NCBI RefSeq assembly: GCF_032854445.1
Contig: NC_088300.1
Location: 52,054,984 to 52,118,983, forward strand
Direction: 5' to 3'
From: Liolophura sinensis
Taxonomy: Eukaryota; Mollusca; Polyplacophora; Chitonida; Chitonidae
Length of the DNA stretch: 64,000 nucleotides
Below are positions 14,225-20,200 of this stretch, in pieces; position 1 is the stretch's first letter, and every line of letters starts with the position of its first letter. The position numbers and the translations under genes were made by a program. Under the pieces are notes generated by a model, which saw only the letters and a list, made by a program, of their open reading frames with translations, was not told the DNA's origin and did not search any database.

Positions 14225-17200
14225 ATGGCGGACGATGACAACAAAACTACACGTGCGGAGAATAGAAGTAAGGTTTTTGCAGGCATTGAAAAGATAACGA
14301 AATTCACTGCATGTATGATGCACAGTGCATTCATTTTATATTGAGTCTTTCCTTTTTTGTGGTTGTAAAGTTAATCATGTGATCATAAATAACGAGGTCC
14401 TAGATCGTACCGTGTCGAAATGTTGCTCAGCCACCAGTCTGTAGCTCAGTGTACCTCGACTAGGTTATCTTGACTGTTGTGTTGGTTCGTTCACGCGGCG
14501 TGTCATGCCTAACAGTAACGCAAGACTACACATAGTAAATCCTATCCTATCTAGATATTTTAAAAGTACACACTTAGTGGAAGGATGTGATACGATGAAC
14601 GATTTATTTTAAATTCTGACATGCGATGTTGCCAACTTTTTCTGTTCTTGACATTACAGGCTTAATTGTTCATGTGTTTAGCTCTAGTACAAAAGTCTAT
14701 TTTGTCTGAGAATTGGAAATCTCTCCTGCCTGTCTTCATACACTTAATTACATGGAATCCATGTGAAAAGTTTAATTTCTATCCATACTCTTAATTACAG
14801 GTGTTGATCCAGTTGTGAGGAGGCATACCTTTTAATCCTGTGATTTTGGGGTGGTGTGAAGCTGGACCTCAAACACTTGTTATATCAAAAATTAACTGTT
14901 GCACAACATCTACAGTGATGCATTGTATTAGTTCTTATCGAAACGCCGTTCTGTCTTTAATGTGATGTCATGATGATGAGCTGTGACAGGAATATTTGAC
15001 ATCAGTAAACTGGTGCCATGGTCCTGTGGCCAAACATTTGACGAGTCCTTATTCCTGGAAATTTGGAAATCGGGTGCATCGAAATGTCTTCTCATTGAAA
15101 ATAATCTGTTTACAACACCCTTACGGTGATTATGATGGTTTTAATCACAGTTCTTTAGAGGTCATTTCAACCAATGTTGCATACACAGTGAGCTTGATCT
15201 TCCACAGAAAACTCACTGCTTACTTACCAAAGGCTAAAGGTAGAGTCAACCCATGAAACACCAATCAATCAGGCAATCTAAAAACTTCGCACTTTGCATG
15301 TCAGAAGTTCCCGACACTTTGGCTACATGGCATACATGTACTTGATGCAAAATGCCTTTTGGCTTTAAAACACCTTGATTTTCTCAGTTGTCTTCTTATC
15401 ACATGAAGTCCATATTAAATTGATGTTATCCTACATGTATTCCTATATTTTTGGGGGGCTCTACAGACGTAAAATTTTACAAATAAAGGTCAGTTATTTC
15501 TTATAGTTGTGCAAACGACTTCAGGCCTATGCTATGTTGCTGTTTTCAGTTCTCGAAGGCAAAAGTTGTGAATTAAGAAAATGCATTGCAAGTTGAAATT
15601 CCATATATAGCCATTCCTCAGTAATAAAACCATGTAACAGGGTGGTAAATAAGCACCAGCTGCCTCTGGGCTGGAGAGAATTTCCCTTCATTATAGAGGT
15701 AGAAGCATGGACTTGAAACCCAGGGATTACTGGTTCAAATCCCCAGCTGTTAAACCCCGTCATCCAAACATTTTCAAAAAATTTTCATCTGTTTTCAGAC
15801 AGGCAGAAGACTCGTGCAGTGGAGGCAGAAGACCGACTTACAGTCCCTAAGGGATGGAAGGAACCAGCTTTTACCAAGGAAGATAATCCGCAGGGACTGC
15901 TAGCTGAGAGCTCATTTGCCACATTGTTTCCCAAGTATAGGGAAAAATATCTCAAAGAATGTTGGCCCTTGGTGAAAAAAGCTCTGAGCGAATATGTAAC
16001 TATTTTGTATTTTATATCACTTCTTTTTGTATTAATTAAATTACCTGTAGTGTATTGAAGAGAGTGTCAGATATATTGTGTCTTAGCATGTAGATAACAT
16101 TGACATCAAGTTGACAATTTGTGACTTTTGACTTTGACTACTAGAAAAGGGAACTCCTAAGTAGTCCATTGCACCTTTGTACCATTCATAACATCATAAG
16201 AACATGTTCTGTGTTGGACAAAATCTCTTTTTCACTGTCAAAGGTATAAAAGTAACACTTGAAAACAATCTAATTTATTCAAATTTGGACTAAGCCAGCA
16301 AATTTTTCTGGCTGAAGACATATTTACATGATCAGAAAGCCTTAAAAAACACAAAATCCATAAAAATTTCTATATCAGACAAGAGAAAAAGGTGGATTTT
16401 CAGTTTTATTTTTGTTAGATTGTTTTTTAGTGTCTTTTTGTGCTTGTTTTTTGTAAATTGATGTTGCCTAATGTCATCCAGTGTCACTTAAATCAGCATT
16501 CAGGCACCATGCATCTTGTTGACGTTTAATGTAACAGTGTCTGTGTTTTCAGTATTGAGTGTTAAGTTTGATTGAAATAAATGATTTCTTGCGAGTTTGA
16601 CTTTACATCATGAATCTTTCAGGATTTTTCTGTCCCCATGTTTACATATCACTGCTACAGCTGCTGTAAATGACCTCACATTCGTCCCATAACCAAGCTT
16701 GGAAATTTGTTTGTCATGTAGGATGATACCCTATGCATTTTAGCAATGCGAGTTTTAACACCAAAAGTAATGTATCTGTTTGCCTGTGAAAATGCAATTT
16801 GTGGGAGGGGGGGGGGGGCAGATGTATAGGTCATTTATTGTAATATTCACTTGATTTTGTGTAGGAATTTTTTTTCAGATGCAATGCTTTATTATTTTTT
16901 TTTATTCTGTTTATTAGAACATCAAAGCAGAGTTGGACCTGGTGGAGGGAAGTATGACAGTGTCCACTATGAGAAAGACCTGGGACCCCTACATCATTGT
17001 CAAGGCTAGGGATCTGATCAAATTGTTAGCGAGGAGTGTTCCTTATGAACAGGTAGGAGTGTCTTACATCATTGTCAAGGCTAGGGATCTGATCAAATTG
17101 CTAGCAAGGAGTGTTCCTTATGAACAGGTAGGTGTGTCTTACATCATTGTCAAGGCTAGGGATCTGATCAAATTGTTAACCAGGAGCATTCCTTATGAAC

Positions 17201-20200
17201 AGGTTGAAGGATCTTACAGCATTGTCATGGCTAGGGCTCTGATCAAATTGTTAACCAGGAGTGTTCCTTATGAACAGGTTGAAGGATCTTATGTCTTTGT
17301 CCTGGCTAGGGATCTGATCAAATTGCTTACCAGGAGTGTTCCTTATGAACAGGTATGAGGATCTTACATCATTGTCACACTGCTAGGGATCTGATCAAAT
17401 TGTCTCCCTCCACGGCAATCAGTCAAGCTCGCTAATGTATTAGTGTACTGGGTTATCTCCCTTTGATTGATGTGTATGGAAAAGGCCTGTCCTCTTTCTT
17501 TTTCAGGCATGTAAAATTTTGGAAGATGACGTAGCTTGTGATATTATCAAAGTGGGATCCCTGGTTCGGAATCGGGAACGCTTTGTCAAAAGACGACAAC
17601 GTTTGATTGGTCCAAATGGCTCAACACTGAAGGTAAGAGACCAAAATGACAATACCTCAAAATGTAATGCATGCACTACAAATACCCAAATTCTTCTAAA
17701 TTTTAGGACAGATATTAGTAGTGTTGAAAGTAGAATATTACATTTCTTTACTAGCCTTTTGGAAAAGTAAAGATATGAGTATGTTGCTCATTAGATGGTC
17801 TAACCATGCGAATAAAAATAAACTCAATATTTCTGCTACGATTACATATACATGTATATGGGCTAAAATGATCAGACCAGGTGTCCCAAAAGTTAGAAGA
17901 AATATGGTATAGTTTATGTATGGTTATATAAACAATGAAATAAATAGGTAATGATGAAGAATTTTGTTACATCTGTTAAAGTGGCGGAAACCATTTGATG
18001 CAGAATTAGTGTTAATATCATGAAAGTGAGGACATGATCTTTTCTCAGCCAGTTTCTTTCTTAACATGGATTCATGCCGAAAGTTTGACAGTTTCGAGAG
18101 GAAACTTTGACACAGGAGTTCTGGAAGAGTGAGACCTATTTTGGCACTTGCACATGTTGTACATATGTTCTTGTTTGTAGGCAATCGAGCTACTGACCAG
18201 TTGCTATGTATTAGTTCAAGGTAACACAGTGTCTGCTCTGGGGCCTTACAGGGGCTTAAAAGAGGTAAATGGATACAGGATTTAGATGAATTCTACTTTT
18301 ACTAAAGGGGTACGGGAAAACTTTTCTGTCACAATTGGTGGCACTGCAGTCAGTCAGGAATTCCACTTCATAAATCTTTTATTGCATGCATTTATTTATA
18401 ACATATGTGGTCTACTTATGTTGGAATGTTGATGTTGTGGTAAAACATTCAGAAACACTAAAATGATGAAATATACTCACTCCAGTATACTTTTAGTATC
18501 TCAGTGACAAGAAACCAGTCAAGCACAGCTGTGCTTCAGTTTGATCACTAACCCTTAACTAATTGGTTCACGGATCGAGATGCTTGCTGATGCAAGCTCA
18601 AACCCGGCCTTGAACAGGGAATTCATAGATTCCCCAGTGTCAATGCCCGTGGGGCCTGAGTGACAATTAGCAGTCCATAGGTGTGACCATTTGTGCATGC
18701 TAGCATTTGCTGCAGACTGTTTGCCTTGCACCACCTAGCGTTGTGTTTTAACAAGTTGTCAGTGACTTGCCCACGGGTAGTGGTTTACCTCTGGGCATTC
18801 TGATTTATTCCACCAATTAAACTGAACGCCTTTGTATGAGTGAAAATTATTGAATACGGCAGTTAACAGTAATCGATTAAATAATTAAAAGTATATGAAC
18901 AAATAAATAGATCATGTGTTTGTTGTTGTCACTGATTCAGCTGCTGAATCCGAGACAACAACAAAAACATGACTTCATCTACAGCCTCACTGCAGATGTG
19001 ACAGATTGCATCAGGAACCTAGCAAGATATGCAAGTGTCCGAGTTTCCTCCAGCCACGTACCAAACTACCATTATAATATTAGCCAATTAGTCTTAGGTA
19101 CAGCTTCAAACAATTAAATATTAAATGTATTATTTTGTTTATTTATGTATTTATTTGAGTGGTGTTTTACACAGTACTCAAGAACATGTCACTTATACAA
19201 TAGGGGCCAGCATTGTGGAGGGAGAAAACATGGCAGAGCCCGGGGGAAACCCACGACATTCCACATATTGCCGATAAATATATAAATGAATACAGAGTGA
19301 GGGCAGAAAGGGTTTTTTTTATTGTTGTTTTTAAAATACATTTTACAGCATGAAAACTTAAATATGGGTATAATGTCCACAAACTCGCATGACAATGTTT
19401 AGGCTAATTCTTAACATTGTATTCAGGTAAGGCGGATAGTAGAAGATACCATGAAGAACATACACCCTGTATATAATATTAAGGTGAGTCACCTGTGTGT
19501 TTAGTAACCTGTTTGTGTTTATTTTGAAAGCACCGATTCAAACAAAGGAGTTGAAAGTCTGTGAACAAAGGATTGTCGGTGAAGGTAGAGGAAGCCATAC
19601 TAACTATTGTAATCATTTTGTTCCATTCACTTAGGTAATGTATGGCAGAGTTCCTCCTGAGGGCTGCAGAGTCTCCCCTCCATATAAATCGGGCCACTGT
19701 CATCGATCTGAACTACTCGTTGGTATAGTGAAATAAATTCATGAAAAGACTTTATCACTTTACAGATAAAACTATCCTTACAACATCAAAAAGGTTATAT
19801 TTTCTTCATTTAGTTCTTTTATGAATGAGACGAGACAGTTTCAGTCATTGAAATGGAAATGGATTTCATAAAAATAACCATCGTGCAATTCTTCATATGT
19901 TGACTAGTATACTACATATATTACAATCTCTTTCCAGACACTCATGATAAAACATGAACTGGCCAAAGATGAGGCTTTAAGGAATGAGTCTTGGGACAGA
20001 TTTCTGCCAAATTTTAAGTCTAAAAACATCAGCAAGAGGAAACAGCCATTGAAGAAGAAAATGAAAAAGGCTTACACACCTTTTCCTCCTCCACAGCCTG
20101 AGAGCAAGGTATATATCTACACAGTGATGTCCATACTATGCTTAACGAAAAACTGAAAATCAATAAAAACTGGTAAAATAAGCTAAATTTTAATAGGTAT

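What the first reader, a model, noticed from the sequence alone, without database searches (positions are those of the whole stretch)
16990..17402. KRR1 exon 3 end and its splice donor amplified into an open-frame 75-bp array
Seen: five full copies of 63 exonic plus 12 formerly intronic bases. No stop occurs before the fifth donor, and every copy offers a phase-0 CAG|GT. Known: the repeated peptide ([20 protein letters not shown]) is a conserved helix-rich segment of the KRR1 KH region. Inference: donor choice can yield KRR1 proteins with 0-4 extra 25-residue repeats (356 to about 456 residues) without a frameshift. Frame retention may be selected, or simply inherited from a 75-bp unit.
Basis: partly seen in the sequence, partly recalled or inferred. 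Interest (0 to 1): 0.8.

Follow-up and report, generated by a model that had tools for sequence, protein, structure and literature searches.

The report
Tandem array duplicating KRR1 splice donor
In this animal genome the end of an exon of the ribosome-assembly gene KRR1, with its splice site, has been copied five times in a row; the copies could be spliced into longer proteins, but the array looks like an ordinary neutral tandem repeat of a kind already known in the human CBS gene.

Summary
A 75-bp array (16990-17403, 5.5 copies) repeats the last 63 bases of KRR1 exon 3 plus 12 bases of intron 3. All five full copies carry CAG|GT in phase 0, and the frame is open from 16918 to a TGA at 17356, just behind donor 5. 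Spliced isoforms of 356, 381, 406, 431 and 456 residues all read through. By consensus score, donors 1, 2 and 5 are strong (9.3, 10.6, 8.4 bits), but 3 and 4 (GTTGAA, 1.6) fall below all ten donors of the gene model, so the realistic products are +0, +25 and +100 residues. An open frame is expected without selection: 30-38% of neutral simulations keep it. Codon omega is 0.51, not distinguishable from 1 (p=0.30); copies 3-5 alone give 1.24. One KRR1 locus and one array were found in this assembly. The anatomy is known: the human CBS 31-bp VNTR spans an exon/intron boundary. Best reading: a neutral boundary-spanning minisatellite that creates donor ambiguity. No RNA data were available, so isoform use is untested.

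The parts
14225..22214 (+). KRR1 gene, ATG to TGA, 11 exons in the model (14225-14267, 15799-15995, 16918-17052, 17507-17632, 18181-18264, 19427-19483, 19938-20108, 20312-20389, 20932-21034, 21531-21580, 22188-22214 with the stop)
   Evidence: Hand-made splice model, 356 aa (the script's last exon stopped one base short, inside the TGA at 22212-22214, which is read); Pfam KRR1 KH1 and KH2; KRR1 chains by phmmer. No transcript evidence.
16918..17052 (+). KRR1 exon 3 as ended by donor 1
   Evidence: Joined to exons 4-6 it aligns without a gap to the five KRR1 sequences shown
16990..17064 (+). Unit 1: the exon's own 63 bases plus 12 intronic; donor 1 at 17053, CAG|GTAGGA, 9.25 bits
17065..17139 (+). 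Unit 2: peptide identical to unit 1; donor 2 at 17128, CAG|GTAGGT, 10.6 bits, the strongest of the five
17140..17214 (+). Unit 3: donor 3 at 17203, CAG|GTTGAA, 1.6 bits (weak); A14T and V17I
17215..17289 (+). Unit 4: donor 4 at 17278, CAG|GTTGAA, 1.6 bits (weak); I2S, K5M, D8A, A14T
17290..17364 (+). Unit 5: donor 5 at 17353, CAG|GTATGA, 8.4 bits; I2V, I3F, K5L, A14T; in-frame TGA at 17356
17365..17403 (+). Sixth, partial unit with a 2-base length change (frameshifted, no donor)
17507..17632 (+). KRR1 exon 4; its acceptor would serve all five donors (94% pyrimidine over the 17 bases examined)

Best explanation
This is a minisatellite that arose by tandem duplication (slippage or unequal exchange, inferred) of a segment straddling the exon 3/intron 3 donor of KRR1. 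Shown: the units, their frame, their donors and, within the search made, their single location. Inferred: since the unit is 75 = 3 x 25 bases and its exonic part was already open, each new copy inherited an open frame and a phase-0 donor with its own upstream exon context. Copies 3-5 then drifted with little or no constraint, and two of the donors are now poor by consensus. The ancestral-length 356-residue protein is probably the main functional product. Donor 2, which has nearly identical upstream context and a higher score than donor 1, and donor 5, probably leak at some level into 381- and 456-residue forms. These would insert 25 or 100 residues between residues 125 and 126, near the end of KH1, and are expected to be tolerated by-products and not selected isoforms.
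For: Array and frame. Donor scores and isoform lengths; among 4,017 GT sites on the + strand of the window, 0.2% score as high as donor 2, 0.9% as high as donor 5, and 29% as high as donors 3/4. Neutral simulations, 20,000 each: no stop before donor 5 in 38% (from consensus) and 30% (from unit 1). Codon model on the 63 exonic bases: omega 0.51, p=0.30 against 1; split model 0.12 for units 1-2 and 1.24 for units 3-5, p=0.097. Copies 3-5 change positions that are identical (I3, D8, A14, V17) or always K/R (K5) in the 7mq8, 5wlc and 5jpq chains. Tandem arrays are common here: 21 merged arrays, 8,828 of 64,000 bases. Precedent: CBS 31-bp VNTR c.1444_1467+7.
Against: Several weak signs lean the other way. 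In only 12-19% of neutral simulations were both the open frame and all copied GTs kept. The exonic 63 bases vary less than the intronic 12 (13 of 63 against 6 of 12 columns, Fisher p=0.064). Adjacent-unit pN/pS is 0.43 (8 synonymous of 20 changes, 27% expected, p=0.15). The stop sits exactly behind a good donor 5, as it would if exon 3 now ended there. In-silico folding at 20 C leaves donor 5 more accessible than donor 1 (0.43 against 0.13). No RNA evidence supports or excludes any donor.
Confidence: 0.66

Rival explanations
1. Exon 3 in this species really extends to donor 5 (or donor 2): KRR1 constitutively carries extra 25-residue repeats at the KH1/KH2 border.
For: Open frame through donor 5 with a stop directly behind it; donor 5 scores 8.4 bits and donors 3/4 are poor; donor 2 outscores donor 1.
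Against: The five KRR1 sequences whose alignments were shown have no insert. Copies 3-5 alter residues identical in the three chains compared and show omega 1.24. The insertion point lies inside a domain that, according to passages of PMC5738357, takes part in protein binding.
Confidence: 0.13
2. Regulated splicing: donor choice is controlled and the +25/+100 residue forms have a function in ribosome assembly.
For: In-frame donors; competing donors are regulated by SRSF1 in hundreds of human genes (PMC5585400, abstract and passages).
Against: No sign of protein-level selection on copies 3-5; frame openness is expected by inheritance; no conservation data were obtainable.
Confidence: 0.05
3. 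New-intron formation by tandem AGGT duplication: the spliceosome uses CAG| of one unit as an acceptor, removing 75-base unit introns within the array.
For: Every full unit has CAG|GT, the site that the Rogers model needs (described in PMC4974935); introns made of 24-nt tandem repeats are reported in fission yeast (PMC3629103, one passage).
Against: Tracts before the unit AGs are pyrimidine-poor (0.47 in 5 of 5) against 0.59-0.94 for the ten KRR1 acceptors; the exon 4 acceptor (0.94) would be expected to outcompete them.
Confidence: 0.04
4. Purely intronic and inert: only donor 1 is used, and the array has no effect on mRNA.
For: The single-unit product matches the KRR1 chains without a gap; units 3-5 look neutral.
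Against: Donor 2 has the same upstream 63 bases but for two synonymous changes, and a better +6 base, so exclusive use of donor 1 has no evident basis in the sequence.
Confidence: 0.12

Closest known systems
Human CBS 31-bp VNTR, c.1444_1467+7(16_21), exon 13/intron 13
   Same: A tandem array whose unit joins the end of an exon to the start of the intron, so that each copy carries the donor region. The position notation in PMC2630376 (passages) implies 24 exonic plus 7 intronic bases; PMC1395315 (passage) lists it as exon 13-intron 13.
   Different: 31 is not a multiple of 3, so an extra copy would shift the frame there; 16-21 copies; polymorphism is documented. Here the unit is 75 bp, in frame, in 5.5 copies of unknown polymorphism. 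That CBS repeats are alternatively spliced is my recollection of Lievers 2001, which is not held.
Human CBS 844ins68
   Same: A duplicated intron 7/exon 8 junction gives two competing splice sites, and one is strongly preferred (PMC2630376, passages).
   Different: A single 68-bp duplication. The passage calls the sites donors, but the junction named is an intron/exon one and the title of Romano 2002 in its reference list says 3' splice site; so it is the acceptor side. The upstream copy is removed from the mRNA.
Intron gain by tandem duplication of AGGT segments (potato RdRp, ATP2A1, fission yeast SPOG_01682)
   Same: Tandem copies of a segment containing a splice site create new splicing choices (PMC4974935, abstract and passages; PMC3629103, one passage).
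   Different: There a new intron arises; here an existing donor is multiplied and the unit AGs look like poor acceptors.
Alternative tandem 5' splice sites (e.g. DOK7 intron 4)
   Same: Competing donors for one acceptor (PMC5585400, abstract and passages).
   Different: DOK7's two sites are 11 nt apart and shift the frame; here the sites arose by 75-nt duplication and keep it.

Membership tests
KRR1 (small-subunit processome KH protein) | Sequence match to KRR1 and to both KRR1 KH domains | tested here: met
   7mq8_NY E=3.2e-68; PF17903 111 bits and PF21800 155.8 bits, above cut-offs 23.4 and 27
Exon/intron-boundary minisatellite (CBS VNTR type) | Tandem unit spans the donor boundary | tested here: met
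   63 exonic + 12 intronic bases, 5 full units
Exon/intron-boundary minisatellite (CBS VNTR type) | Copy number varies between individuals | not testable with these tools
   One assembly only; a search with the array found no second haplotype copy
Exon/intron-boundary minisatellite (CBS VNTR type) | Extra donors are used in mRNA | not testable with these tools
   No RNA data; donor scores only
Protein-coding repeat under selection | omega significantly below 1 between units | tested here: inconclusive
   omega 0.51, p=0.30; units 3-5 1.24
Protein-coding repeat under selection | Open frame rarer than neutral expectation | tested here: not met
   30-38% of neutral simulations keep it; 12-19% if all copied GTs must be kept too; indels not modelled
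Intron gain by tandem AGGT duplication | Unit AG usable as an acceptor (pyrimidine tract) | tested here: not met
   0.47 pyrimidine in 5 of 5 units against 0.59-0.94 for ten native acceptors

The most novel reading that the evidence does not exclude
Donor amplification has turned a highly conserved ribosome-assembly factor, with a single locus here, into a length-variable protein: this animal makes KRR1 with one (donor 2) or four (donor 5) extra copies of a segment from the end of KH1, possibly as the main form. That would be an in-frame minisatellite serving as a ready-made generator of protein length variants at the KH1/KH2 border.
Probability: 0.12. Interest if true: 0.65.

Novelty: new member of a known kind. 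Interest (0 to 1): 0.32.

Why it matters
It is a clean natural experiment in donor choice: five in-frame donors with similar upstream exon context compete for one acceptor in a gene for a conserved protein. RNA reads from one tissue would show whether the intron-distal, strongest or intron-proximal site wins. It also illustrates how protein repeats could be born from splice-site minisatellites. If donor 1 dominates, it is an ordinary intronic minisatellite.

Tried and rejected
Selection for the open frame was tested and not supported: 30-38% of neutral simulations stay open (substitutions only, no indels modelled, unit 1 held fixed). Codon selection across units was inconclusive. The idea that the unit is a dispersed element was rejected: apart from the array, blastn at E<=1 gave only matches of 15 and 12 bases in the window, and a search of the own 609-Mb assembly with the array gave two matches, the array and its own partial sixth unit (that tool warns that it skips very common words and scores only the best candidates). 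A second KRR1 locus was sought with an 87-residue piece and not found (three matches, all in this gene). Unit AGs as acceptors look poor. Rfam gave 0 matches in the window at gathering scores.

Paper searches: for the general phenomenon and for KRR1 (0 papers; 12: 20 of 45 listed; 13: 9 of 9; 16: 20 of 105; 17: 1 of 1; 33: 12 of 70; 43: 8 of 13, none of the 8 holding the term KRR1), for Krr1 structure (10 of 15), and for donor competition (0; 34: 12 of 24). None of the listed titles is about an array in KRR1. The library lacks most subscription journals, so this is not proof of absence. Passages of PMC8724738 and PMC5188458 (references only) added nothing that I used. Structure prediction of the 145-residue exon 3 plus array read was never accepted.

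The donor score uses human-like base frequencies that I recalled, not a matrix from this species; the ten donors of the KRR1 model are the only local yardstick. The organism labels of the PDB chains (7mq8 human, 5wlc yeast, 5jpq Chaetomium) are recalled; the table names the molecules only.
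Full report
Observation. The array is real and placed as described. Tandem Repeats Finder gives 16990-17403, period 75, 5.5 copies, 88% matches, 0% indels. The five full units, their translations and their donors were read directly. Units 1 and 2 differ by 3 of 75 bases, units 3 and 4 by 5, and the other eight pairs by 8-12. The exon 3 frame runs open from 16918 through the first four units and up to donor 5, and ends at TGA 17356-17358, directly behind the GTA of that donor. A sixth, partial unit at 17365-17403 has a 2-base length change and no donor. 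Outside that change it matches units 1 and 3 exactly over the 13 + 22 bases compared, unit 2 with 1 difference, unit 4 with 2 and unit 5 with 5.

Gene. The product of exons 3-6 (134 residues) matches KRR1 with no gap in the five alignments shown, among them 7mq8_NY E=3.2e-68, 5wlc_NK 4.8e-67 and 5jpq_g 2.1e-60 (I recall these as human, yeast and Chaetomium). Pfam puts KH1 at residues 52-132 and KH2 at 134-224. Unit 1 is residues 105-125, so extra units would enter after residue 125, seven residues before the end of the KH1 match. [quoted passage not shown] One KRR1 locus was found in the 609,464,459-base own assembly (three matches, all in this gene), and the array was found in no second place there.

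Donors. With a recalled human-like frequency table, the donors score 9.25, 10.6, 1.6, 1.6 and 8.4 bits; the ten donors of the gene model, donor 1 included, range from 2.8 to 11.9. Of 4,017 GT sites on the + strand of the window, 0.2% score at least as high as donor 2, 0.9% as donor 5, and 28.9% as donors 3/4. So the extra donors are not equal: 2 and 5 look usable, 3 and 4 (GTTGAA) do not. Donor 2 carries the same upstream 63 bases as donor 1 but for two synonymous changes, so sequence alone gives no reason for the cell to use donor 1 exclusively. Which one wins is unknown: SRSF1 and hnRNP A1 are reported to activate intron-proximal and intron-distal sites respectively (PMC5585400, introduction passage). 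In a fold of 16918-17520 at 20 C, donor 1 was the least accessible (0.13) and donor 5 the most (0.43). The unit AGs are pyrimidine-poor (0.47 in 5 of 5) compared with the ten native acceptors (0.59-0.94), so splicing from unit to unit is unlikely.

Selection or inheritance. I placed the observed numbers of substitutions at random in units 2-5, 20,000 times. The frame stayed open to donor 5 in 38% (starting from consensus) and 30% (starting from unit 1); frame and all copied GTs stayed in 19% and 12%. Indels were not modelled. Adjacent units show 8 synonymous and 12 non-synonymous changes, pN/pS 0.43; 8 of 20 synonymous against 27% expected has p=0.15. A codon model on a fixed tree that I chose gives omega 0.51, p=0.30 against 1; letting units 1-2 and units 3-5 differ gives 0.12 and 1.24, p=0.097. 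Units 3-5 replace residues that are identical in the 7mq8, 5wlc and 5jpq chains (A14T in units 3, 4 and 5; V17I in unit 3; D8A in unit 4; I3F in unit 5) or always basic there (K5 to M in unit 4, to L in unit 5). Exonic columns vary less than intronic ones (13 of 63 against 6 of 12, p=0.064), a lean towards constraint that five short units cannot settle. My reading: unit 1 is constrained as an exon, unit 2 is a young copy of it (or converted by it), and units 3-5 behave as neutral. A 75-base unit makes the open frame an inheritance.

Surroundings. Tandem arrays are common here: 21 merged arrays cover 8,828 of 64,000 bases (from the rows, merged by hand), and a 96-bp array begins 22 bases behind the KRR1 stop codon (22237-22509). 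Capture of one exon end by such an array needs no special mechanism.

Comparison. The closest known case is the human CBS 31-bp VNTR, written c.1444_1467+7(16_21), whose unit runs from exon 13 into intron 13 (passages of PMC2630376, and PMC1395315). That its repeats are alternatively spliced I recall from Lievers 2001, which is not held. CBS 844ins68 duplicates an intron/exon junction with preferred use of one site. Tandem AGGT duplication as a source of introns is described in PMC4974935 (abstract and passages) and a related fission yeast case in PMC3629103 (one passage). The KRR1 array differs from CBS in keeping the frame and in the gene hit. I therefore call it a new member of a known kind.

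Verdict. Observation confirmed, interpretation partly supported. Most likely it is a neutral boundary-spanning minisatellite that makes donor choice ambiguous, with donors 1, 2 and 5 as candidates and the 356-residue protein as main product (inferred). RNA junction counts would decide.

Noticed in passing
22237-22509: A second tandem array (96 bp x 2.9, 81% match) starts 22 bases behind the KRR1 stop codon, so the same gene carries an array in its probable 3' UTR.
   Followed up: partly
96-3648; 57289-58119; 60419-62561: Large minisatellites (37 bp x 97, 52 bp x 16, 105 bp x 20.5) lie in the same window. The 105-bp unit is a multiple of 3, but all six frames of that array carry 24 or more stops.
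   Followed up: partly
8241-9491 (+): A 416-codon open frame matches ankyrin repeats and a C-terminal SOCS box (Pfam); ASB-like by recall.
   Followed up: partly
10124-11275 (-): A 383-codon stop-to-stop frame on the minus strand has no Pfam match at E<=0.001.
   Followed up: partly
15995 (KRR1 exon 2 donor): The model's exon 2 donor TAT|GTAACT is the weakest of the ten (2.8 bits); that exon end needs transcript support.
   Followed up: no
13060-13270 and 19150-19260: Two stretches that look alike by eye (GGTGTTTTA...GTACTCAAGAA...GCCAGCATT) resemble a dispersed repeat that I recall as common in mollusc genomes; no call identified it or the species.
   Followed up: no
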